Source: Muribaculaceae bacterium
GTDB lineage: Bacteria; Bacillota; Clostridia; Lachnospirales; Lachnospiraceae
NCBI GenBank assembly: GCA_023663465.1
Contig: JAMPHJ010000020.1
Location: forward strand, 1 to 36,948
Reading direction: 5' to 3'
Length of the DNA stretch: 36,948 nt
A program made the translations under genes and the position numbers. Under the pieces are notes generated by a model. It saw nothing but the letters and a program-made list of their open reading frames with translations, ran no database searches and was not told where the DNA came from. Positions 103 through 24,615 of the stretch are shown here, piece after piece (position 1 is the first letter of the stretch; each line of letters starts with the position of its first letter).

Positions 103-123
103 TTGGACAATTCAATAGAAAAT

Positions 124-306
124 ATACAGGTGTCAAAACAATGCGTCAGAGGCATTGGTTTTGGTGAAAAGGGAAACAGGTGCAAATCCTGTACGAACTC
201 GTCACCGTAATTAGGGAGCAGAAGCCGATATATCACTGGGAAACTGGGAAGATGGCGGATGCGCTGGGACAACCCTCGAACTTCAAGCCGGGAGACCTGC
301 CTGTAT
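124..306 (+). promoter_or_regulatory. Cobalamin (B12) riboswitch
   Basis: The 3' part carries the B12-box-like block AGCCGGGAGACCTGCC, the most conserved signature of the cobalamin aptamer. Upstream lie other aptamer-like blocks (for example ATCACTGGGAAACTGGGAAG near 231-250). The aptamer is closed by a P1 helix: ATACAGG (124-130) is exactly complementary to CCTGTAT (300-306). It sits between the promoter and the first gene of the corrinoid locus, so it should lower expression of cbiK, the ABC importer and probably the whole B12 operon when adenosylcobalamin or another corrinoid is plentiful. The identification rests on motif and context; I could not run a covariance model. Confidence 0.95.
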
Positions 307-426
307 GTTGTACGGAAACATTTGTTTCAGACCACGAGTAACTGGTTGTACGTTTGAACTTGCAGAGTCATCGCGGGAGCGGTATGCTTTCTTGTTTTGA
401 TGCCCTGCAGGATTATTTTGTGTACG

Positions 427-14937: not shown

Positions 14938-16820
14938 TAACCGTCAGGGGAAAGCATTTATTAGAACAGGCGGATGTGATTATTTACGCCGGGTCTTTGG
15001 TGAATCCAGAGCTGCTTGCGTATGCGAAACCGGCATGTGAAATTCATAACAGTGCGAAACTGACGCTGGAAGAAGTCATCCAGCTTATGTGCGACGCTAA
15101 CGCAAAAGGAAAAACAATAGTCCGGCTGCATACGGGAGACCCCAGCGTATACGGTGCAGTCAGGGAGCAGATGGACGAGCTGGATAAGCGGAAGATTCCC
15201 TATGAGAGCTGTCCGGGGGTAAGCGCCTGTTTTGGGGCGGCGGCGTCCCTAAATCTGGAATATACCCTGCCCGGCGTATCCCAGTCTTTGATTATCACCA
15301 GAATGGCGGGAAGGACCGAAGTCCCAGATAAGGAAAGCATAGAGAGTTTTGCGGCGCATAGGGCGTCTATGGCGATTTATCTGAGCGCAGGAATGTTACA
15401 GGAATTAAGCGCCCGACTCATCGCCGGCGGCTATGAAAAGACCACACCGGCGGCGCTTGTCTATAAAGCCACATGGAAAGAGGAAGAGGCGTATCTTTGT
15501 ACGTTAGAAACCCTATCTGATACAGGTATGGCGCATCATATCACCAAAACGGCGTTGGTATTGGTAGGTGATGCGATTGCCCATCAGCATTATCAGAAAT
15601 CAAGATTGTATGCTTCTGATTTTACGACCACTTTTCGCAGCCGGAAGACAGAAGCGGCATTCCCGCTACAGAATGTAGGGCGGAAGCTAAGTGTTATCAG
15701 TTTTACGCAGAAAGGGAAGCGGCTTTCGGAAAACATTAAGGAAGGGCTGGAAAAAGAGCAGGAAGTCTGCCTATATACGAAATGTCAGATTTGCGGGATA
15801 GAAGAAACTGACACGGATGTCACTTTTGTAAAAACCTCTATTATCGATTGGGCAAAAGAGCAGTTGGAGGAAAAAAACGCCTTGTTGTTTCTTGGAGCCT
15901 GTGGCATTGCAGTCAGGGCGATAGCCCCTTTTCTGACGGATAAGCTGCACGATGCGCCGGTACTCGTCATGGATGAAGACGGCGGATATATTATTCCGCT
16001 TTTATCAGGGCATATGGGCGGGGCAAACGAGCTGGCGGGACTCATTGCACAAAAAACGGGCGCAGTGCCGGTGATTACGACGGCGACAGACATTAACCGG
16101 AAGTTTGCAGTGGATTTGTTTGCCAAAAAAAACGGTTTTTCCATTCAGAAGAAAGAAGGAATCGCGAAAATATCCTCGAAAGTATTGGCAGGTGAAGAAA
16201 TCACGATATCCATAGAACCGCTTCGCCGGGATGATAACAAGGCAGATAGCGAGGAGTCCGCCAACAGATTGAAAAAAGAGGTCTTGTCGGATGGGATAAG
16301 GCTGGTGTCTGATTTGCCAGACGAAATAAAACTTGCCCCCTACCCCCCGTCAGCCCCGGTCGATATTGTGGTTTCTTCCGAGAATACCCCATTTGATGCA
16401 GTAATGGTATTAAAGCCTAAAGAATACATTCTGGGGGTAGGCTGTAAAAGAGGAAAAAGCGCAGAGGAATTGGAGCGTTTTATTGGGGAAACGCTAGAGA
16501 GGCTTTCTATTTCTAAGGCGCAGATTTACGCCCTTTCCTCCATTGCGCAAAAAAGCGATGAGCAGGGAATTTTGACATGGTGTAGAAGGGAAGGAATCCC
16601 GTTTTTTACTTATTCTGCGGAAGAATTGCAGCAGGTAAATGGAACTTTTGGCACATCTTCTTTTGTCAGGGAGCAGGTGGGCGTTGACAATGTATGCGAG
16701 AGGGCGGCGCTAAAAGCCTGTGGGCAAGGCGGAAAACTGATTTTCCCCAAGCGTGCGGAAAACGGTATGACGATTGCAGTCGCCAGAAGAGAATGGACGG
16801 TATGGTTTGATGGAGAATAG
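14895..16820 (+). CDS. cbiF-cbiG: CbiF-CbiG fusion: cobalt-precorrin-4 C11-methyltransferase and cobalt-precorrin-5A hydrolase
   Basis: One 641-residue chain joins two consecutive pathway steps. Residues 1 to about 245 are CbiF, an SAM-dependent methyltransferase: YFVGAGTGAADLITVRG, YAGSLVNPELL, LHTGDPSVYGA, YESCPGVSACFGAAASL and LVLVGDAI. Residues about 264-641 are CbiG, which opens the delta-lactone and releases the C20 fragment: LLFLGACGIAVRAIAPFL, VMDEDGGYIIPLLSGHMGGANELA (about 359-381), and the C-terminal YILGVGCKRGKSAEEL (about 512) through VCERAAL and TIAVARREW. AGGGGGG sits seven bases before the ATG. The stop codon lies in the first unit of a 35-bp triplication that separates this gene from cbiH. 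A fusion would allow the labile intermediate to pass directly between the active sites; that is inference. Confidence 0.95.
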   Translation: MVYFVGAGTGAADLITVRGKHLLEQADVIIYAGSLVNPELLAYAKPACEIHNSAKLTLEEVIQLMCDANAKGKTIVRLHTGDPSVYGAVREQMDELDKRKIPYESCPGVSACFGAAASLNLEYTLPGVSQSLIITRMAGRTEVPDKESIESFAAHRASMAIYLSAGMLQELSARLIAGGYEKTTPAALVYKATWKEEEAYLCTLETLSDTGMAHHITKTALVLVGDAIAHQHYQKSRLYASDFTTTFRSRKTEAAFPLQNVGRKLSVISFTQKGKRLSENIKEGLEKEQEVCLYTKCQICGIEETDTDVTFVKTSIIDWAKEQLEEKNALLFLGACGIAVRAIAPFLTDKLHDAPVLVMDEDGGYIIPLLSGHMGGANELAGLIAQKTGAVPVITTATDINRKFAVDLFAKKNGFSIQKKEGIAKISSKVLAGEEITISIEPLRRDDNKADSEESANRLKKEVLSDGIRLVSDLPDEIKLAPYPPSAPVDIVVSSENTPFDAVMVLKPKEYILGVGCKRGKSAEELERFIGETLERLSISKAQIYALSSIAQKSDEQGILTWCRREGIPFFTYSAEELQQVNGTFGTSSFVREQVGVDNVCERAALKACGQGGKLIFPKRAENGMTIAVARREWTVWFDGE

Positions 16821-16900
16821 AATCTATATAGACGGTATGGTTTGACGAAGAATAGAATTTATATGGACGGTATGGTTTGATGAAGAATAGAATCTATATT
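16796..16900 (+). repeat. Three tandem copies of a 35-bp unit at the cbiFG/cbiH junction
   Basis: Units at 16796-16830, 16831-16865 and 16866-16900 each begin GACGGTATGGTTTGA and continue with an AGAATAGAAT.TATAT block. They differ at only a few positions. Unit 1 contains the cbiFG stop codon; unit 3 contains the cbiH start. Unit 1 also encodes the first residues of CbiH (MENRIYI) in the cbiH frame before hitting a TGA in unit 2, and unit 2 has ACG in place of the ATG. Confidence 0.95.
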
Positions 16901-17626
16901 GTGGGCATGGGACCCGGCAGGGAGGAAATGATGACTGGCGAGGCGTTAGCGGCGTTGGAATGGTCTGACGTGATTGTCGGGTATACGCTGTATCTGAATC
17001 TGCTGCCAGAGCGTTTTCATGAGAAAGAATTGTTGTCCACGCCGATGCGTCAGGAAGAGGCGAGGTGCAGACTGTGTTTTGAGGAAGCAGAAAAAGGGAA
17101 AAAGGTCGCACTTATCTGTAGCGGCGATGCGGGCATCTATGGAATGGCGTCTTTCATGTATGCGATTGGAAGAGAGTACCCGGAAACGGAACTTTTCGTT
17201 ATCGCGGGAATTACGGCGGCAAGCAGCGGAGCCGCGCTTTTGGGGGCGCCGTTGAATCATGATTTCTGCTGTATCAGTCTCAGCGATTTGCTGACGCCTT
17301 GGGATAAGGTTGAGAAAAGATTGTATGCGGCGGCAGAAGGCGATTTTGTAATCGTACTCTACAATCCTTCCAGTCAGAAAAGAAAAGGGCATCTGACGAA
17401 AGCTTGCGACGTTTTGCTGAGCCTTATTGAGCAGGAGCGGGCGTGTGGATATGTGGAAAATATAGGAAGGGAAGGAACGCGGGCGGCGGTTTGTACGTTG
17501 AAGGAATTGCGGGACAGAGAGGTCAACATGTTTACGACGGTATTCATCGGCAATTCCGAATCGGAAATCATCGATGGGAAACTGATTACGAAGCGGGGGT
17601 ATGACTTATCTTCCATAAAAGGGTAA
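16880..17626 (+). CDS. cbiH: Cobalt-precorrin-3 C17-methyltransferase
   Basis: CbiH (CobJ family) methylates C17 and contracts the ring. The 248-residue protein has NRIYIVGMGPGREEMMTGEA at its start, VIVGYTLYLNLL, the SAM-binding motif ICSGDAGIYGMA, VIAGITAASSGAALLGAPLNHDFCCISLSDLLTPW, FVIVLYNPSSQKRKGHL and TVFIGNSES, all typical. The ATG at 16880 follows an in-frame TTG at 16877. No clear ribosome site is visible because the upstream sequence is the 35-bp repeat, whose GGACGG is the only purine-rich stretch; expression could therefore be altered relative to an ancestral overlapping arrangement. Confidence 0.95.
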   Translation: MKNRIYIVGMGPGREEMMTGEALAALEWSDVIVGYTLYLNLLPERFHEKELLSTPMRQEEARCRLCFEEAEKGKKVALICSGDAGIYGMASFMYAIGREYPETELFVIAGITAASSGAALLGAPLNHDFCCISLSDLLTPWDKVEKRLYAAAEGDFVIVLYNPSSQKRKGHLTKACDVLLSLIEQERACGYVENIGREGTRAAVCTLKELRDREVNMFTTVFIGNSESEIIDGKLITKRGYDLSSIKG

Positions 17627-17629
17627 ACG

Positions 17630-17843
17630 GAGAATTGCGAAACTAAGATTTTGCAGCCGTTCGTTGTACAGAAGATACAATCCAGCGCAGGCACGCTCTC
17701 GCTACGGTTCAAACGCAGCGGTACTAAGTTCAAAAGCCGCGTTGCGTCTTTTTCACTAAGTACCGGCGTTTTCACAGTACCTGCTTATGGATTTGTATCC
17801 TCTGTACAACTACACATTTCTAAACTTTCATTTCGCAATTCTC
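17630..17843. repeat. Long imperfect palindrome, copy 1 of an intergenic repeat element
   Basis: Nearly the whole 258-base gap between cbiH and cbiJET is one palindrome. Its 13-bp tips (17630-17642 and 17831-17843) are perfectly complementary, and inner arms 17663-17684 and 17788-17810 pair with one mismatch and one bulge. The centre (17689-17774) is shared, in opposite orientation, with a second element at 24437-24532; the arms outside the core are unrelated between the two. Within the core, CGGTACT pairs with AGTACCG and AAACGC with GCGTTT. No protein-coding gene is apparent. It may be a MITE-like element, a structured RNA, or both. Confidence 0.85.
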
Positions 17844-17884
17844 TCATGGTTATTAGATTTAAGGAAGGAGCATGATGACAGGCG

Positions 17885-19921
17885 ATGAAAAAATTATTGA
17901 TATTTGCGGGGACGACAGAAGGCAGGCAGTTATCGGAAGCTCTTGTAAGAGCAGAAATAGCACATACTGTCTGCGTGGCGACGGCATATGGCGAAATTGT
18001 CTTAGAGCCCCATGCTCTGGTAACGGTGCGCCGGGGAAGGATGCAGCGGCAGGAAATAGAGGAGTTTCTAAAGACGGAGCAGTTTGAAGCCGTAATCGAT
18101 GCGACCCACCCTTTTGCAACAGAGATTACCGCCAATATCAAGGCGGCGATAGCGGAAAGAAAAAAGGCGTGCGCGGATATAGTTTATCTGCGTCTGAAAA
18201 GAGAAGGCAGGGCACGGCAGGAAGACGTGACCTATTTTGAAACCAAGGAAGCGTGTGCGGCAGCGCTGGAACATACAGAGGGCAATATCCTTTTGACGAC
18301 TGGCAGCAAAGAACTGGGCGCTTATTGTCAGATAGAGAGCGTCAGAAACAGGTTATATGTGCGGGTACTGCCTAGTATGGAAAGTATTTCCTTGTGTGAG
18401 GCGCAGGGTATTTATGGGAAACATATCCTTGCCATGCAGGGACCTTTCAGTGCGGAAATGAATGAAGCCATCCTCCGGCAATATCATATTTCCTGTCTGG
18501 TCACAAAAGAGAGCGGCTTATCCGGCGGGTATCCAGAAAAAGTAGCAGCGGCGGCAAAAATGGGCGTGCAGGTTTTTGTCCTAGGCTGCCCAAAAGAGGA
18601 TGAAGGATATTCTTTTTATGAAATCTGTAGGAAGTTAGAGGGGCTTTGTGCCAAGAAAATCCGGGCGGCAGGGCGGCTGGAAATCGTTCTGGCGGGTGTT
18701 GGCATGGGGCATGAGAACTGTCTGACAAAAGAAGCAGAGCGGGCGATCAAGGAAGCGGATATTTTAATGGGCGCAGAGCGATTGTTAGAAACAATTCCCA
18801 CAGCAGCAGAGAAATATCCCTATTATCAGATTCATCAGATCATCCCCTGTTTACAGGAAATCCAGGAAAGAAACAGGGGCGTGTCGCCAAAAAAGATAGG
18901 GATTCTTTTTTCCGGGGACAGCGGTTTTTACAGCGGCTGTCAGACATTGTATCCGGCATTGCAGAAAGAGATTCTGGAAAAAAGGCTGGCAGCGTCCCTG
19001 CATGTTCTGCCGGGGATATCCTCGGTGGCTTATCTGGCGGCGTGTATCGGGGAAAGTTATCAGGACAGCGCCATTTATAGTATTCATGGGAAAAAGCTAT
19101 GCAATCTGGCGCGCAGAATCGCAGTCAGTCCCAAAACCTTTCTGCTTACTTCCGGTGTTGGGGATATCAACCGATTGGGCAGACTTTTACTGGAAGAAAA
19201 TCTGACGGAATGCAAGATAATTATAGGATATCAGTTATCTTACGAGAATCAGCGGATAGAAAACTATACCCCCGCGGAGTGCTGCACGCTGCAGGAAGAG
19301 GGTTTGTATACCTGTCTGGTCAAAAATCCCCATGCCTTGTCAAAGAGACTGACGCATGGCATGGCGGATACACAGTTTATCCGGGATAAGGTTCCCATGA
19401 CGAAAGAGGAAGTACGGGAAGTTAGTCTCTGCAAACTCCGGTTATGGGACAAGGCGGTGGTCTACGATATCGGCAGCGGCACCGGCTCTATGGCAGTAGA
19501 AATCGCCGCGCTATCCGACGATATCTCAGTATATGCGATAGACGCAAAAAAGGAAGCCCTTTCTTTGCTAGAGAAAAACAGAGATAGATTCCATCTAGAG
19601 AATCTGATACCTGTGGAAAAAACGGCGCCAGAGGGATTATCAGACCTTCCCGCAGCAACCCACGCGTTCATAGGCGGAAGCGGCGGCAGACTAAAAGAAA
19701 TCCTAGAGACGCTACAGCAAATCAATCCCCGGATGAGAGTAGTAATCAACGCCGTCAGCCTGGAAACCATCTGCGAACTAAAAGAAATCCTAACAGCAGA
19801 CAGAATAACCGACGAAGAACTCATACAGCTACAAGTAAACAAAGTAAAAGAAGCCGGAAATTATCATCTACTACAATCTGAAAACCCGGTTTGGATTTGT
19901 TCCTTTAATTTTTCTAAATAA
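17885..19921 (+). CDS. cbiJ-cbiE-cbiT: CbiJ-CbiE-CbiT triple fusion of the cobalt-precorrin-6 steps
   Basis: This 678-residue chain carries three activities. Residues 1 to about 250 are CbiJ, cobalt-precorrin-6A reductase: LLIFAGTTEGRQLSEAL, VIDATHPFATEIT, ILLTTGSKEL, LAMQGPFSAEMN, LVTKESGLSGGYPEK. About 264-480 is CbiE, the C5-methyltransferase: IVLAGVGMGHENCLTKEA, ILFSGDSGFYSGC, VLPGISSVAYLAA. About 490-678 is CbiT, the C15-methyltransferase/decarboxylase: VYDIGSGTGSMAVEIA (SAM-binding, about 526-541) and AFIGGSGGRLKEIL. AAGGAAGGAG (17861-17870) is 14 bases from the ATG, long for an ordinary site; an out-of-frame ATG at 17872 is nearer and could start a short peptide. CbiE-CbiT fusions are common (CobL-like); the extra CbiJ is less so. 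Confidence 0.95.
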   Translation: MKKLLIFAGTTEGRQLSEALVRAEIAHTVCVATAYGEIVLEPHALVTVRRGRMQRQEIEEFLKTEQFEAVIDATHPFATEITANIKAAIAERKKACADIVYLRLKREGRARQEDVTYFETKEACAAALEHTEGNILLTTGSKELGAYCQIESVRNRLYVRVLPSMESISLCEAQGIYGKHILAMQGPFSAEMNEAILRQYHISCLVTKESGLSGGYPEKVAAAAKMGVQVFVLGCPKEDEGYSFYEICRKLEGLCAKKIRAAGRLEIVLAGVGMGHENCLTKEAERAIKEADILMGAERLLETIPTAAEKYPYYQIHQIIPCLQEIQERNRGVSPKKIGILFSGDSGFYSGCQTLYPALQKEILEKRLAASLHVLPGISSVAYLAACIGESYQDSAIYSIHGKKLCNLARRIAVSPKTFLLTSGVGDINRLGRLLLEENLTECKIIIGYQLSYENQRIENYTPAECCTLQEEGLYTCLVKNPHALSKRLTHGMADTQFIRDKVPMTKEEVREVSLCKLRLWDKAVVYDIGSGTGSMAVEIAALSDDISVYAIDAKKEALSLLEKNRDRFHLENLIPVEKTAPEGLSDLPAATHAFIGGSGGRLKEILETLQQINPRMRVVINAVSLETICELKEILTADRITDEELIQLQVNKVKEAGNYHLLQSENPVWICSFNFSK

Positions 19922-19940
19922 TTACGAAAGGCACCCCATT

Positions 19941-20921
19941 ATGTTAAAAATCCTCAAAATTTCCACCGGAAGCGTCGCCGCCATCCTGCTTGCCGAGGCC
20001 CTAGGCTTAAACTATAGCGCGTCAGCAGGAATTATTACCCTTTTGACAATACAGGATACGACGAAAGAAACCATCGCTATTTCCATCAAACGGATTACCG
20101 CATTTTTACTGGCGGTCATCCTTGCGTATGTCGTGTTTCATTTTGCCGGATACAGAGTGGTTGCTTACGGAATCTTTCTTTTTCTATTTATCGCGTGCTG
20201 TAGGTCGTTAGGGCTTGAAAATGCGGTTTCTACGAATGCGGTGCTCGTTACGCATTATCTGGCGGGAAAGGATATGTCGCTTCCGGTGATTGGAAATGAA
20301 GCCCTGCTGTTATGTATTGGCGCAGGGATAGGGACGCTGCTAAATCTTTATATGCCGGGCAAGGTAAAAGAAATCCGCACCATGCAGCATATGTTGGAAA
20401 ATGATTTAAGAAATGTGCTTTTTTCTATGTCGGAATCTATCAAGAGAGAAGATAAGCCGGATGATACGGGCGCATGTTTTGATAAACTTTCTGAGGATAT
20501 TACTGTCGGTAAAAAGCAGGCGTTTGCTTATAGGAACAACACGTTTTTCCAGGAGTCCGAATATTTTATATCTTATATGGATATGAGGGAGCAGCAATGT
20601 ATCGTTTTAAAAGAGATTCATAAAAAAATTGTAAGTATCTGCAAAGTTCCGCCTCAGGCAGAAGAGATTTCTACGTTTATATACGAAATAAGCGTTTCTT
20701 TCGGTGAGTCCAATAATGCAAGGGAGCTGCTTGAAATGCTGGAAGAGCTGCTTTTACGCATGAAAGATTCACCACTGCCTGTCACAAGGGAAGAATTTGA
20801 GGAGCGGGCCGTATTATATTCTGTTTTGATGGATTTGGAGTATTTTTTGAAACTGAAGAAAAATTTTGCGGATACGCTTACGGTAGAGCAAATTCGCAGG
20901 TATTGGAATCAGCAGGTATGA
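19941..20921 (+). CDS. Aromatic-acid-exporter-like (ArAE/FUSC-type) membrane protein
   Basis: A 326-residue protein with about four to six hydrophobic segments in residues 1-135 and a helical soluble C-terminal half (about 145-326). LGLNYSASAGIITLLTIQDTTKETIAISIKRITAFLLA and STNAVLVTHYLAGKDMS fit the ArAE_1-type Firmicute family, whose substrate is unknown. AAAGG lies about ten bases before the ATG. It has no known link to B12 synthesis although it follows cbiJET by only 19 bases; it may be part of the transcript by position alone or may help corrinoid precursor or product export. The latter is speculation. Confidence 0.75.
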   Translation: MLKILKISTGSVAAILLAEALGLNYSASAGIITLLTIQDTTKETIAISIKRITAFLLAVILAYVVFHFAGYRVVAYGIFLFLFIACCRSLGLENAVSTNAVLVTHYLAGKDMSLPVIGNEALLLCIGAGIGTLLNLYMPGKVKEIRTMQHMLENDLRNVLFSMSESIKREDKPDDTGACFDKLSEDITVGKKQAFAYRNNTFFQESEYFISYMDMREQQCIVLKEIHKKIVSICKVPPQAEEISTFIYEISVSFGESNNARELLEMLEELLLRMKDSPLPVTREEFEERAVLYSVLMDLEYFLKLKKNFADTLTVEQIRRYWNQQV

Positions 20922-20957
20922 TATCCCATGAGGCAAACGACGTTTTCCTAATAGGTC

Positions 20958-20987
20958 TTGCTATTAGTAACTGCCATAAAGTATACT
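20958..20987 (+). promoter_or_regulatory. Candidate promoter for the AAA-ATPase/nuclease-like gene
   Basis: TTGCTA (20958-20963) and TATACT (20982-20987) are 18 bases apart in the 102-base gap before the gene. The -35 box overlaps a perfect hairpin, CTAATAG (20948-20954) with CTATTAG (20961-20967), which could be an operator. Only moderately convincing. Confidence 0.4.
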
Positions 20988-21023
20988 GGAATCAACAGAT
21001 TTGTGTAAAAGAGGGGATAGCAT

Positions 21024-22751
21024 ATGGGGATAACGATAGCAATCGGGCAGCAGGATTTTGAGACAGTCAGGGAAAGAGGATATTTCTATATCGACAAAAC
21101 CAGATTTATTCGCGAATGGTGGGACAGCGGTGACAGTGTTACCTTGATTACCCGTCCGAGAAGATTTGGCAAAACTTTGACAATGAGTATGTTGGAAAAG
21201 TTCTTTTCTGTTGGTTATAAGAATAGAGCAGATTTATTTGAAGGGCTGGATATATGGAAGGATGAAAGTTACCGGAAGCTGCAGGGGACATACCCGGTTA
21301 TTTTCCTGAGCTTTGCCGATATAAAAGAAACATCTTTCCAGGATGCAAGAAAAATGATCTGTTATAATATCGAACAGCTTTATAACAAATATGCTTTTTT
21401 GTTGGAAGGAAATCTGCTCAACGATAATGAGAAAAAATTTTTTAGGAATGTTACGGCACAGATGGAAAATTATATTGCAGCCTCTTCCTTGAAAACCCTG
21501 TCCAGTTACTTATACCGTTACTATGGCAGGAAGGTAATTATTCTTTTGGACGAGTATGATACCCCGATGCAGGAAGCGTATATAAATGGGTACTGGCAGG
21601 AGCTTGCAGAGTTGACAAGAAGCTTGTTTAATGCCACTTTTAAAACAAACTCCTGTCTGGAACGCGCTATTATGACAGGGATTACCAGGATAAGTAAGGA
21701 ATCGGTTTTTTCAGATTTGAATAATCTAAAAGTAGTGACAACGACGTCTGAAAGTTATGCAGATTGCTTTGGGTTTACAGAAAATGAAGTTTTTGCGGCG
21801 CTCAATGAGTTCGCCCTCGCAGACCAGAAGCAGAAGGTGAAAGACTGGTATGACGGATTTGCATTTGGGATGAGAAGGGATATTTATAATCCGTGGTCTA
21901 TCATCAATTTTCTGAAAGAACGAAAAGCAGGGGCATACTGGGCAAATACGAGTTCCAATAACCTGATAGAAAAACTGCTTAGGGAAAGTAACCCGGATAT
22001 CAAGCAGTCTTTTGAACAGTTGCTAAGTGGTGGGGCGCTTCACATGGAAATTGACGAACAGATTGTATATAACCAACTGCCTGCCAAAAGGAACGCCATT
22101 TGGAGTCTGTTGCTTGCCGGGGGGTATCTGAAAGTATCCGGGACAACGTTTGTGGAAGATGCAGGGCGCACTTATTATGAACTTATGCTGACCAATAAAG
22201 AAGTTCGGATTATGTTTGAAAATATGATTCAGAACTGGTTTTCAGAAAATGGGAATTACAATGCTTTTATTAAGGCATTGTTACTGGATGATGTAAAGGC
22301 GATGAACCTGTATATGAACAGAGTAGCGCTGGAAACGTTCAGCTATTTTGATACCGGAAAAACGGCTTCTGTGGAGGAACCGGAGCGATTCTATCATGGA
22401 TTTGTCTTAGGGATGATGGTGGAGCTGTCTGACAGGTATGTCCTTACGTCAAACCGTGAAAGCGGATTTGGACGCTATGATGTGATGCTGGAACCAAAAC
22501 ATTCAGAGGACAATGCATATATTTTGGAATTTAAAGTTCAGGATACGGAAGAAAAAGGGTTATATGATACGGTTCAGGAAGCATTGCGGCAGATTGACCG
22601 GAAAGATTATGCGGCGAATCTTGTAGCAAAAGGAATCCGAAATGAGCGTATAAAGAAGTACGGATTTGCGTTTTGTGGGAAAAAAGTGCAGATTGGCTCT
22701 AACTCCGATGCCTCAAGCCTGGAAAGGAACAATAGCCACAATGAAGATTAA
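21024..22751 (+). CDS. AAA-ATPase-like protein with C-terminal PD-(D/E)XK nuclease-like domain
   Basis: A 575-residue protein of a family abundant in gut Bacteroidetes and Firmicutes. The N-terminal part opens with IGQQDFETVRERGYFYIDKTRFI and has the unusual P-loop RPRRFGKT (44-51); KVIILLDEYDTPMQEAYINGYW supplies Walker B. The C-terminal part has GRYDVMLEP followed by AYILEFKV (about 485-510), the D...ExK pattern of PD-(D/E)XK nucleases. The function of the family is not established; roles in defence or mobile-element biology are guesses. GAGGGG is seven bases before the ATG. It has no recognised role in cobalamin synthesis, sits between cbiJET and cbiA, and its last 11 bases overlap cbiA. 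Confidence 0.85.
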   Translation: MGITIAIGQQDFETVRERGYFYIDKTRFIREWWDSGDSVTLITRPRRFGKTLTMSMLEKFFSVGYKNRADLFEGLDIWKDESYRKLQGTYPVIFLSFADIKETSFQDARKMICYNIEQLYNKYAFLLEGNLLNDNEKKFFRNVTAQMENYIAASSLKTLSSYLYRYYGRKVIILLDEYDTPMQEAYINGYWQELAELTRSLFNATFKTNSCLERAIMTGITRISKESVFSDLNNLKVVTTTSESYADCFGFTENEVFAALNEFALADQKQKVKDWYDGFAFGMRRDIYNPWSIINFLKERKAGAYWANTSSNNLIEKLLRESNPDIKQSFEQLLSGGALHMEIDEQIVYNQLPAKRNAIWSLLLAGGYLKVSGTTFVEDAGRTYYELMLTNKEVRIMFENMIQNWFSENGNYNAFIKALLLDDVKAMNLYMNRVALETFSYFDTGKTASVEEPERFYHGFVLGMMVELSDRYVLTSNRESGFGRYDVMLEPKHSEDNAYILEFKVQDTEEKGLYDTVQEALRQIDRKDYAANLVAKGIRNERIKKYGFAFCGKKVQIGSNSDASSLERNNSHNED

Positions 22752-24144
22752 AAGAATCATGATTACCGCCCCCAGAAGCGGGAGCGGGAAGACGACAATC
22801 ACCTGCGCGCTGCTTGGGGCGTTAAAAAATGCCGGATACCGGGTAAGCGCCTACAAATGCGGACCGGATTATATCGATTCGATGTTCCACGAGAAAGTGA
22901 TTGGCATTCCTACGAAAAATCTGGATACTTTTTTTACAAATGAGGAAACGACGCGGGAACTCTTCCTAGACGGCGCAAGAGAAAGCGACTTCGCGGTTTT
23001 GGAAGGAGTTATGGGGCTGTACGACGGTCTGGGAGGCATCAGGGAGGAAGGCTCTGCCTATCATCTGGCGCAGGTGACGAAGACGCCGATTATCCTGGTC
23101 GTGGATGCGAAAGGCATGGGGCGTTCCCTGATTCCGCTGATTGCGGGGTTTCTGGACTATGACAGGGCACATCTGATTCAGGGAGTACTATTGAACAGGA
23201 TTTCCGGGGGCTTCTATGAAACGATGAAACCGCAGATAGAGGAAGCCTTGAAAATCCGGGTCGTCGGCTTTCTGCCTGATAAAGAAGAATATCATATAGG
23301 CAGCAGACGCCTGGGACTCATGATGCCCCATGAGCTGCAGGATATGCGGCAGAAACTACAGACAGTCTCAGATACCTTTGTCGCAAATGTTTCCTTGGAC
23401 AGTATCGTGGAAATTGCAGAAAACGCCGAAGAAATAGAAACAGAGAAATCAGAGACAATAACCAAAACTGACAGAAGTGTCATAATCGCAGTGGCAAAAG
23501 ATGAAGCCTTCTGCTTTTACTATATAGATAACATCCGTCTGCTGGAAGCATACGGCGCAGAAATCAAATATTTTTCACCGCTGCGGGATGAAAAATTGCC
23601 GGATGGATGCCATGCCCTGCTGCTTGGCGGCGGATACCCGGAACTTTATGCAGGACAGCTTAGCAGGAATGAGAAAATGCGCCATGCAGTGAAATGGGCA
23701 GTGGATAATGGAATGCCCGTTGTGGCGGAATGCGGCGGTTTTATGTACTTACATTCTGCGCTTACGGATAAAGAGGGCGTCCGTCATAATATGGCGGGCG
23801 TTATCCCGGCAGTTTGTTTTGATACCGGTAAGAAGGTTCGTTTCGGGTATGTGGAAATACAGGAAAAACAACCTCATTTTCTGCCAGCGGGCGATAAGAT
23901 AAAAGGGCATGAATTTCATTATTATGACAGTACCGATAACGGCAGGGACGCCGTTGCAATCAAACCGGCGACAGGAAAAACTTATCCCTGCATCATGGCG
24001 GATGAAAATCATTTTATGGGATTCCCCCATCTATACTATCCCTCCAACCCGGCGTTTGCGGAAGCTTTCGTTGAGAAAGCCCGGAAATATAAAGAAAAAA
24101 TAACGCAGCCAAAGAGCGTGGAAGAAAGCAGGAAATCCGAATGA
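22741..24144 (+). CDS. cbiA: Cobyrinic acid a,c-diamide synthase
   Basis: CbiA amidates the a and c side chains of cobyrinic acid with glutamine and ATP. The 467-residue protein starts MKIKRIMITAPRSGSGKTT with its P-loop, then YKCGPDYIDSMFH, VLEGVMGLYDG and VVDAKGMGRS. The glutaminase part has LLLGGGYPELYA, the nucleophile Cys331 in VAECGGFMYL, GHEFHYYDS and His430 in FMGFPHLYYPSNP. The frame is open back to 22666 through the preceding gene, but the family match begins at the ATG at 22741, with GGAAAGGA 12 bases upstream. Residues about 228-246 form a short Glu/Thr-rich linker between the domains. Confidence 0.96.
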   Translation: MKIKRIMITAPRSGSGKTTITCALLGALKNAGYRVSAYKCGPDYIDSMFHEKVIGIPTKNLDTFFTNEETTRELFLDGARESDFAVLEGVMGLYDGLGGIREEGSAYHLAQVTKTPIILVVDAKGMGRSLIPLIAGFLDYDRAHLIQGVLLNRISGGFYETMKPQIEEALKIRVVGFLPDKEEYHIGSRRLGLMMPHELQDMRQKLQTVSDTFVANVSLDSIVEIAENAEEIETEKSETITKTDRSVIIAVAKDEAFCFYYIDNIRLLEAYGAEIKYFSPLRDEKLPDGCHALLLGGGYPELYAGQLSRNEKMRHAVKWAVDNGMPVVAECGGFMYLHSALTDKEGVRHNMAGVIPAVCFDTGKKVRFGYVEIQEKQPHFLPAGDKIKGHEFHYYDSTDNGRDAVAIKPATGKTYPCIMADENHFMGFPHLYYPSNPAFAEAFVEKARKYKEKITQPKSVEESRKSE

Positions 24145-24410
24145 AAAATTCACACCGTTTTTTTGAAAATAAAGAATGCCAGTATTTCCCTTGCCATAAG
24201 GGCATGGATGATTTTAACTGCTTATTTTGTTATTGCCCTCTATACAGTAGGGAAAACTGCCCGGGAAATCCCCATTACTTAGAAAGAAACGGCAAAAAAA
24301 TAAAAGATTGTACAGCCTGCACCTTCCCCCACCGCCCCGAAAATTATGACAGCGTGATTGCGGCGCTGAAAGCCACGGAAATCAATTTTCAGTCAGCTCC
24401 TTCACATTAA
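24141..24410 (+). CDS. Cysteine-rich small-domain protein of B12 loci
   Basis: An 89-residue protein with eight cysteines (13, 18, 27, 30, 32, 40, 57, 60) in the order C-x4-C-x8-C-x2-C-x-C-x7-C-x16-C-x2-C, including FPCHKGMDDFNCLFCYCPLY and the closing CTACTFPHRPENYDSVI. It fits the Pfam cysteine-rich small domain (PF04071), which recurs beside or fused to cobalamin genes but has no proven function; binding of metal or an iron-sulphur cluster is plausible. It shares ATGA with cbiA, so it is probably coupled in translation. The last codons (about residues 80-86) lie in one arm of a 21-bp inverted repeat, so its C-terminus may have been altered by the neighbouring element. Confidence 0.85.
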   Translation: MKNSHRFFENKECQYFPCHKGMDDFNCLFCYCPLYSRENCPGNPHYLERNGKKIKDCTACTFPHRPENYDSVIAALKATEINFQSAPSH

Positions 24411-24594
24411 ACCGGCAGGACAGATAGAAATCCCACGAAGGTCCTTGAAAAACGCCGGCACTTAGTGAAAAAGGCGCAACGCGGCTTTTGAACTTAGTAC
24501 CGCTGCGTTTTTCAAGGAGCGAGAGCGTGCCTTCGCGGGATTTCTATCTGCCCTGCCACCTCAATATCTGCATGCTGACTGAAAATTGATTTCC
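24377..24594. repeat. Long palindrome, copy 2 of the intergenic repeat element
   Basis: The 264-base gap before the MATE gene is mostly this palindrome. A perfect 21-bp inverted pair forms its outer edge (24377-24397, inside the preceding coding sequence, and 24574-24594). After unpaired stretches of about 16 bases the arms 24414-24454 and 24505-24557 pair almost perfectly except for a 12-base bulge (GAGCGAGAGCGT region) on one side. The core is the reverse complement of the core at 17689-17774 with only a few differences, while the outer arms are unrelated to those of copy 1. Confidence 0.88.
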
Positions 24595-24615
24595 GCAGCT
24601 GAAAGCAATCCCCTA

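What the first reader, a model, noticed from the sequence alone, without database searches (positions are those of the whole stretch)
17630..24594. Two inverted copies of an ~80-bp core, each set in unrelated but self-complementary long arms
The cores (17689-17774 and the reverse complement of 24437-24532) agree at nearly all positions, including the pairing blocks CGGTACT/AGTRCCG and the unpaired CACGCTCTCGCT stretch. One difference inside the core stem (A versus G) keeps pairing. The flanking arms are long palindromes in both copies but share no sequence with each other. A simple transposon copy would carry its arms along, so either arms are built locally at each insertion, or selection keeps arm pairing. 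This suggests an uncharacterised palindromic mobile element or a structured RNA family.
Basis: seen in the sequence. Interest (0 to 1): 0.72.

Follow-up and report, generated by a model that had tools for sequence, protein, structure and literature searches.

The report
Conserved hairpin core in swappable palindromes
The two look-alike hairpins belong to a many-copy family of small mobile DNA elements found across a family of gut bacteria, in which one conserved folded core sits inside palindromic arms that differ from lineage to lineage.

Summary
Confirmed and extended. The window's two hairpins are members of two subfamilies (A, 17630-17843; B, 24374-24597) of a high-copy element. The window's genome holds at least 61 copies. 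A covariance model of the core matches 74 of 77 genomes of the genus, 105 of 299 sampled genomes of the family and 5 of 398 of the phylum. No Rfam 15 family covers it.

Within a subfamily the arms are largely shared. Many B copies end in ordinary terminal inverted repeats with target duplications (window copy B: GCTGAAAGC on both sides). So the carrier is MITE-like. Unusual are (1) one ~90-nt core with covarying helices and invariant mismatches inside several unrelated palindromic shells; (2) arms that change symmetrically, without the G-U excess seen in the core; (3) cores inverted in place in 5 of 22 species-to-species comparisons; (4) in one genome, insertion into other palindromes, which gives the core a new shell.

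Best reading: a structured core, most likely RNA, carried by non-autonomous DNA transposons whose arms are swapped by nested insertion and rewritten by template switching. Mobilising enzyme and core function are unknown; no Y1 (REP-type) transposase was found in this genome.

The parts
17630..17843 (+). Copy A: whole palindromic element of subfamily A, between two cobalamin-biosynthesis genes; no convincing target duplication
   Evidence: (I3 arms 17630-17680/17793-17843); flanking genes by Pfam; L001 is not among the duplications
17679..17782 (+). Copy A: conserved core plus inner arm ends
   Evidence: I1; 85-96% identity to the other listed copies that match most of the query
17692..17703 (+). 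Copy A: one-sided bulge CACGCTCTCGCT (mini-hairpin GC-N4-GC)
   Evidence: three of its aligned unpaired positions (C, T, C) are 50 of 50 in alignment A3
17713..17769 (+). Copy A: inner stem with A bulge, A.A mismatch, TC/TC internal loop and variable tip
24365..24373 (+). Copy B: left 9-bp target-site duplication GCTGAAAGC
   Evidence: read directly
24374..24597 (-). Copy B: whole element of subfamily B (224 bp); core is on the minus strand
   Evidence: (ends 24374-24397 + and 24574-24597 -)
24449..24542 (-). Copy B: conserved core plus inner arms
   Evidence: G000:C95:24449-24542:-; covariance-model match 24427-24544, 134.6 bits
24598..24606 (+). Copy B: right 9-bp target-site duplication GCTGAAAGC
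   Evidence: read directly

Best explanation
Both hairpins are non-autonomous (MITE-like) palindromic elements that carry the same conserved structured core of about 90 nt. SHOWN: the family is high-copy and widespread; part of subfamily B and most examined G192 elements have terminal inverted repeats and 9-10-bp target duplications; the core has covarying helices around invariant unpaired bases; arms change symmetrically; cores are found inverted in place between sister species. INFERRED: the elements are moved in trans by DDE-type transposases that recognise the shell's ends (from the general anatomy; no autonomous partner found). The core changes shell when a core-bearing element inserts into another palindromic repeat and the outer repeat's ends then carry the nest. 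Arm sequences stay paired while drifting because replication template switching copies one arm onto the other. The core itself is selected as a folded single strand, most likely RNA, for the spread or tolerance of the element rather than for regulating one neighbouring gene.
For: Copy number: 61 distinct own-genome copies with both core halves (one search lists 62; one is the other strand of the L029 hairpin). Spread: 74 of 77 genus genomes, 105 of 299 family genomes at E<=1e-6, 5 of 398 phylum genomes. Mobility: window copy B has perfect 9-bp duplications; 8 of 47 own B and 6 of 37 sister B copies pass a strict search, swapped-flank controls 2 of 137 and 0 of 106; in G192, 21 of 27 fetched copies with both ends have an exact 9-10-bp duplication. 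Shell change: 20 of those 27 have the repeat motif GTWACHRTTCA (up to 1 mismatch) in the 60 nt on one or both sides, against 35 of 618 single 60-nt background windows; two G192 copies have 8-bp duplications outside such an outer shell (L238, L247). Core structure: 44 sequences of three arm types, 94.3% of cells paired, 132 doubly changed cells against 30.7 shuffled and 20-48 when slid; 51 sequences from many genera, 94.6%, 619 against 166.9 and 68-94. Both As of the A.A mismatch and the bulged A are 50 of 50. Strand test: core pairs G-U 78 against A-C 8, outer-arm pairs 17 against 18; outer arms of 159 copies sum to 99 against 121. Symmetric arms: within-copy pairing 93.5% (own B2), 95.8% (sister B2), 93.2% (MAG G151), against 79.2%, 77.8% and 72.1% across copies. 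In-place inversion: 5 clear of 22 orthologous pairs.
Against: No transposase with the same ends was found in the listed end hits of G000, G192 (first 100 of 261 listed) and six relatives. 59 of the 78 core G-U cells come from two columns; without them it is 19 against 8. In G192 swapped flanks also pass the loose duplication search in 17 of 38 cases, because the targets are themselves repeats, so only the exact comparison counts there. The in-place inversions rest on MAG assemblies. Four 158-bp G192 variants lacking part of one arm still carry duplications, so full arm pairing is not needed for movement there. Per-copy purifying selection is not established: core 63 of 1966 sites differ, flanks 339 of 6211, and the sister copies were fetched by an exact core pattern, which biases this. 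Duplications are absent in 0 of 9 G066 and 0 of 5 G016 copies found, and present in only 2 of 11 own A and 1 of 31 G151 copies. No expression data.
Confidence: 0.62

Rival explanations
1. A host-useful structured RNA (small RNA or mRNA-stability element): copies are kept and spread because the folded core regulates neighbouring genes; mobility is secondary.
For: Strand-specific covariation in the core; B copies with decayed ends keep the inner hairpin, though copies were found by their core; MITE RNAs that regulate adjacent mRNAs are described for other bacteria (PMC2229807, passages read).
Against: Of 63 entries placed between two called genes, 29 are tandem, 22 divergent and 12 convergent, and core sense against antisense in tandem pairs is 17 to 12 (a few hairpins are entered twice, once per strand); the core inverts in place; no neighbour-gene theme was looked for beyond the window.
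Confidence: 0.17
2. Nothing is selected after insertion: these are ordinary MITEs, recent enough for the core to look conserved, and covariation comes from DNA template switching alone (quasipalindrome correction).
For: Outer arms show no G-U excess; concerted block change of both arms between orthologs L025 and L115; the mechanism is published for RNA genes (PMC8794818, abstract and start of the introduction read).
Against: Correction would erase the A.A mismatch, TC/TC loop and A bulge, yet these persist across many genera while neighbouring pairs change; the same core recurs with unrelated arms.
Confidence: 0.1
3. Arms are built locally at each insertion by fold-back copying of flanking DNA.
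For: In G066, 9 copies pair with themselves (mean 38.4 bases) much better than with each other (mean 19.8); by eye several palindromes run into copy-unique flank.
Against: Arms and ends are shared within much of subfamily B, G192 and G074; insertion into pre-existing palindromes or template-switch extension explains copy-specific outer arms without it.
Confidence: 0.06
4. REP/REPIN-like elements moved as single-stranded hairpins by a Y1 (RAYT/TnpA-REP) transposase.
For: Strand-specific hairpin with conserved mismatches, high copy, mostly intergenic.
Against: No Y1_Tnp match at E<=1e-10 in G000 or in the 100%-complete G060, which has 66 core matches at E<=1e-6; no association in 299 genomes: both 50, core only 55, Y1 only 102, neither 92, P = 0.47; target duplications are present in some groups.
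Confidence: 0.03

Closest known systems
Bacterial MITEs (Correia/NEMIS, ERIC, RUP; reviewed in PMC2229807, passages read)
   Same: Short, non-coding, terminal inverted repeats, target duplications, many intergenic copies, long hairpin fold; RNA roles proposed for some.
   Different: One structured core with covarying helices and invariant mismatches is shared by several shells with different ends and duplication lengths (8, 9, 10 bp) across a bacterial family. The review passages seen do not describe such a case.
REP/REPIN elements with RAYT transposases (PMC3116915, passages read)
   Same: High-copy palindromic non-autonomous repeats.
   Different: No Y1 transposase found in the genome; target duplications in some groups; a single central core instead of a pair of REPs.
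Template-switch maintained RNA hairpins (PMC8794818, abstract and start of the introduction read)
   Same: Multi-base compensatory changes that rebuild perfect stems.
   Different: Described there for RNA genes; here it would act on the arms of mobile elements while the core keeps its mismatches.
Unnamed structured-RNA candidates from human microbiomes (PMC8040213, passages read; tables not held)
   Same: Reports 250 palindromic candidates, 230 of them predicted terminators, the rest possibly REP-like.
   Different: Main text has no occurrence of Lachnospir-, transpos- or Blautia; whether one of its thousands of candidates is this core could not be checked.

Membership tests
MITE (non-autonomous DDE-type element) | Terminal inverted repeats shared by copies | tested here: met
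   Own B: 65 hits to the 24-nt end at up to 3 mismatches, control 0; G192: 125 + 136 hits to the 18-nt end at up to 2 mismatches, control 1
MITE (non-autonomous DDE-type element) | Target-site duplication of fixed length | tested here: met
   For window copy B (9 bp), part of B (8 of 47 own, 6 of 37 sister, mostly 9 bp) and G192 (21 of 27 at 9-10 bp). Not met or undetectable for most A, G066, G016 and G151 copies
MITE (non-autonomous DDE-type element) | Autonomous partner with the same ends | tested here: inconclusive
   None found in G000, G192 and six relatives; assemblies are fragmented and the G192 listing was cut at 100 places
REP/REPIN with RAYT | Y1 transposase in the genome | tested here: not met
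   G000 (86% complete) and G060 have none at E<=1e-10; no association over 299 genomes
Known Rfam family | Match at or above gathering score | tested here: not met
   Window: only a cobalamin riboswitch elsewhere. At relaxed E, 4 loci gave microRNA hairpin matches far below their cut-offs plus a TPP riboswitch elsewhere, and 16 loci only a glmS ribozyme elsewhere
Structured RNA | Compensatory changes beyond shuffled and slid controls | tested here: met
   A3 was fitted to the model, which favours the structure
Structured RNA | Transcribed | not testable with these tools
   no RNA-seq available
Phase-variable inverton | Promoter inside the invertible segment | tested here: not met
   No promoter-like site within either window element; a consensus scan of two copies only

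The most novel reading that the evidence does not exclude
The core is an undescribed structured-RNA (or single-stranded DNA) domain that behaves as a portable passenger: it has passed between several unrelated transposon shells across one bacterial family, raises the success of whichever shell carries it, and may act in trans, for example by capturing a host or transposase protein through its invariant A.A mismatch, UC/UC loop and one-sided GC-N4-GC bulge.
Probability: 0.4. Interest if true: 0.85.

Novelty: new variant of a known kind. Interest (0 to 1): 0.7.

Why it matters
A motif found in about a third of the sampled genera of the family, with tens of matches per genome in most of the genus members examined closely, and absent from Rfam 15, is a sizeable gap in the annotation of gut bacteria. 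It offers a natural test of two things: whether covariation in long genomic hairpins reflects RNA selection or template switching (core and arms give opposite answers in the same molecules), and whether a folded core can be a shared part of unrelated mobile elements. It also warns that compensatory changes in hairpin arms alone do not prove RNA function.

Tried and rejected
Locally built arms as the general rule: rejected, because arms are shared within much of B, G192 and G074. Chance similarity of two hairpins: rejected. Known Rfam family: none. Phage, plasmid or viral spread: one B copy as query had no match in 72,556 plasmid or 50,697 phage records; the 13 IMG/VR stretches with an exact match to one 16-mer do not match the model; other subfamilies were not searched there. 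RAYT/REP: rejected. Candidate autonomous element G192 C10 (L285): two core-bearing copies flanking a dehydrogenase-like frame (label by eye), not a transposon. G185 stretch L325: two B ends 1.3 kb apart enclose a frame matching PF04754, but they belong to two separate loci. One end is the ortholog of window copy B, whose near half joins the same flank in the opposite orientation and then meets a run of 100 N. The other is a 71-bp core-less mini-palindrome with its own duplication, the ortholog of own L019. So it is not an autonomous element. L326-L328: single ends, a frame without a family search, or a mini-palindrome. Sister locus L085 as an empty-site test: failed, the own locus keeps a remnant of the end. 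Promoter or terminator role: no such site in either window element, no clear orientation bias. Papers: eight searches listed nothing that describes this core; I saw only listings there (10 of 98 papers, 12 of 26) and read passages of five papers; bioRxiv and most subscription journals are not held.
Full report
CHECK OF THE OBSERVATION. The two cores and their long self-complementary arms are in the sequence at the stated places. The cores match over 104 nt at 87% in inverted orientation and each is flanked by its own palindrome. Folding energies are far beyond dinucleotide shuffles (z -9.0 and -16.2). The outer arms of these two copies share no evident sequence.

WHY THE ARMS DIFFER. BLAST of the core against the window's own genome (G000, 3.15 Mb, 182 contigs) gave 40 hits, the number scored of 123 candidates. 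A short pattern gave 68 hits at up to 3 mismatches, reversed control 3. Among the regions fetched, one search lists 62 copies with both core halves; one (L029, minus) is the other strand of the same hairpin, so 61 are distinct. They fall into subfamily A (like 17630-17843) and subfamily B (like 24374-24597); within each the inner arms are largely shared. B has a 24-nt terminal inverted repeat: 65 hits, control 0. Window copy B has the perfect 9-bp duplication GCTGAAAGC on both sides (24365-24373 and 24598-24606, read). A strict scripted search passes 8 of 47 own B copies and 6 of 37 sister B copies, mostly 9 bp at the CACGG ends but not all there; swapped-flank controls 2 of 137 and 0 of 106. 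It missed the window copy, whose one end has two changes. The other groups: own A 2 of 11, sister A 0 of 12, G074 2 of 4, G151 1 of 31, G066 0 of 9, G016 0 of 5, other genomes 6 of 82. Many B copies have decayed ends but keep the inner hairpin; since copies were found by their core, this alone does not show selection.

HOW WIDE IT IS. An exact core pattern in 84,980 species genomes found, outside the window's own, only two MAGs, called Blautia sp. NALB_7861_7 and Butyrivibrio sp. NALB_7823_4. The second carries a third arm type. Both fall in the same GTDB genus as the window's genome: they are G185 and G187, with the coordinates and scores of G150 and G151. A covariance model R1 was built from 44 diverse copies of the three arm types. 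It matches 74 of 77 genomes of the genus, all with best E at or below 7.6e-7; 105 of 299 family genomes at E<=1e-6, 104 of 298 genera; and 5 of 398 phylum genomes, four of the five in the same family. R1 counts per genome are inflated, because a palindrome also matches weakly on its other strand. I inspected the core letters only in the stronger hits; weaker hits are unverified. A 150-genome family sample with the near-exact pattern had found only the own genome, so the sequence diverges quickly.

THE CORE. Across A1 (44 rows, three arm types) 94.3% of pair cells are standard pairs and 24 of 47 pairs have double changes: 132 such cells against a shuffled mean of 30.7, and 20-48 when the partners are slid. 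Across A3 (51 matches at E<=1e-9 in 45 loci that I chose, mostly among the best hits) the figures are 94.6%, 43 of 47, and 619 against 166.9 and 68-94. A3 was fitted to the model, which favours the structure. One weak opposite-strand row was dropped. Inside the covarying helix some unpaired bases hardly vary: both As of an A.A mismatch and a bulged A are 50 of 50, the TC/TC loop 42-48 of 49-50, and C, T, C of the one-sided bulge 50 of 50 each. Such mismatches would not be expected to survive if arm-to-arm copying were the only force.

CORE AND ARMS TELL DIFFERENT STORIES. If a single strand is selected as RNA, G-U should exceed A-C on that strand; in double-stranded DNA the two are equivalent. 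Core pairs: 78 G-U against 8 A-C (19 against 8 without the two columns that supply most). Outer-arm pairs of the same rows: 17 against 18. The outer arms of 159 copies from own, sister and five other genomes sum to 99 against 121 (summed by me; related copies share mismatches, so these are not independent events). Yet arms pair better within a copy than across copies of the same genome: 93.5 against 79.2% (own B2, 27 copies), 95.8 against 77.8% (sister B2, 16), 93.2 against 72.1% (G151, 28), 85.2 against 68.2% (own A, 13), 87.3 against 77.0% (sister A, 13), 84.7 against 70.7% (G066, 9), 87.2 against 79.8% (G016, 4). Groups with more alike arms show little gap: own B1 89.7 against 86.6%, sister B1 91.4 against 88.6%, G192 84.2 against 83.1%, G074 94.6 against 94.0%. 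So the symmetry of diverged arms seems to build up after spread. In one ortholog pair both arms changed as a block with an indel (own L025 against sister L115). This is what template-switch correction predicts (PMC8794818, abstract). In G066 nine copies pair with themselves over a mean of 38.4 bases and with each other over 19.8.

IN-PLACE INVERSION. Of 24 own copies with both flanks mapped to a fetched sister locus, one mapped to a different hairpin and one sister core was missed by the script, leaving 22. The script called 6 flipped; one (L026) is ambiguous because two cores lie close together, leaving 5 clear cases. The window's own copy B looks flipped in the sister as well, from its near half only. 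These are MAG assemblies.

SHELL CHANGE. In G192 (R1: 111 matches at E<=1e-6) the element is mostly 189 bp with ends CAATGTCATTAAG. Of 27 fetched copies with both ends, most chosen for identical scores or end spacing, 21 have exact 9-10-bp duplications. 20 have the motif GTWACHRTTCA (up to one mismatch) within 60 nt, 7 of them on both sides; background 35 of 618 single windows. Two copies have 8-bp duplications outside that outer repeat, as if the nest had moved with the outer ends. In the loose search, swapped G192 flanks pass in 17 of 38 cases because the targets are repeats, so I rely for G192. G074 elements themselves end in GTAACAGTTCAG with 8-bp duplications in 2 of 4 copies, and some arms of the Butyrivibrio MAG run into a similar outer sequence. 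Nested insertion into palindromes is thus an observed way for the core to gain a new shell; that the shells then mobilise it is inferred.

WHAT MOVES IT. No Y1 transposase match in G000 or G060 at E<=1e-10 and no association over 299 genomes, so a REP/RAYT system is unlikely there, allowing for 86% completeness of G000. No autonomous partner was found in the listed end hits. No plasmid, phage or viral copy was found with the few queries tried.

FUNCTION. By a crude ORF call, 76 entries (own, sister and G151 copies with enough flank; a few hairpins entered twice) lie in tandem (29), divergent (22) and convergent (12) gaps, inside a called frame (12, some probably spurious) or unplaced (1). Neither window element contains a promoter-like or terminator-like site. 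Conservation of single copies between species is not shown beyond ascertainment: core 63 of 1966 sites and 18 gap columns, flanks 339 of 6211 and 522. I commit to a folded core, most likely RNA, selected for the success of the element; this is the least certain step.

NOVELTY. Eight searches of the paper library listed no description. The carrier is a known kind (MITE); the shared structured core across shells is the new part, hence 'new variant of a known kind'.

Noticed in passing
window 24141-24410: The stop codon and about the last 12 codons of a cysteine-rich small-domain gene (PF04071) lie inside element B, so the insertion supplies the gene's present end; the Pfam match (residues 6-79 of 89) lies before it or just reaches it.
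   Followed up: partly
window 16793-16910: Three copies of a 48-nt direct repeat spaced 35 nt apart (90% identity to the reference) lie at the start of the tetrapyrrole methylase gene upstream of element A.
   Followed up: no
L070 and L075 (G000); L325 and L328 (G185, G186): Mini-palindromes with B ends but no core, probably internal deletions. The one in L325 is the sister ortholog of a full core-bearing copy in the own genome (L019) and keeps its target duplication.
   Followed up: partly
L286-L290 (G192): A 158-bp variant lacking part of one inner arm occurs at five places; the four that the script could check have 9-10-bp duplications.
   Followed up: partly
L272, L275, L279, L283 (G733): The only sampled genome outside the own family with strong matches; the core letters are kept with different arms, suggesting transfer or an older origin.
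   Followed up: partly
L325 437-1225 (G185): A YhgA-like putative transposase frame (PF04754; recombination-promoting nuclease type by recall) lies between two B-type elements.
   Followed up: partly
window 111-318: Cobalamin riboswitch at the start of the window, which also holds the cobalamin genes around element A.
   Followed up: no
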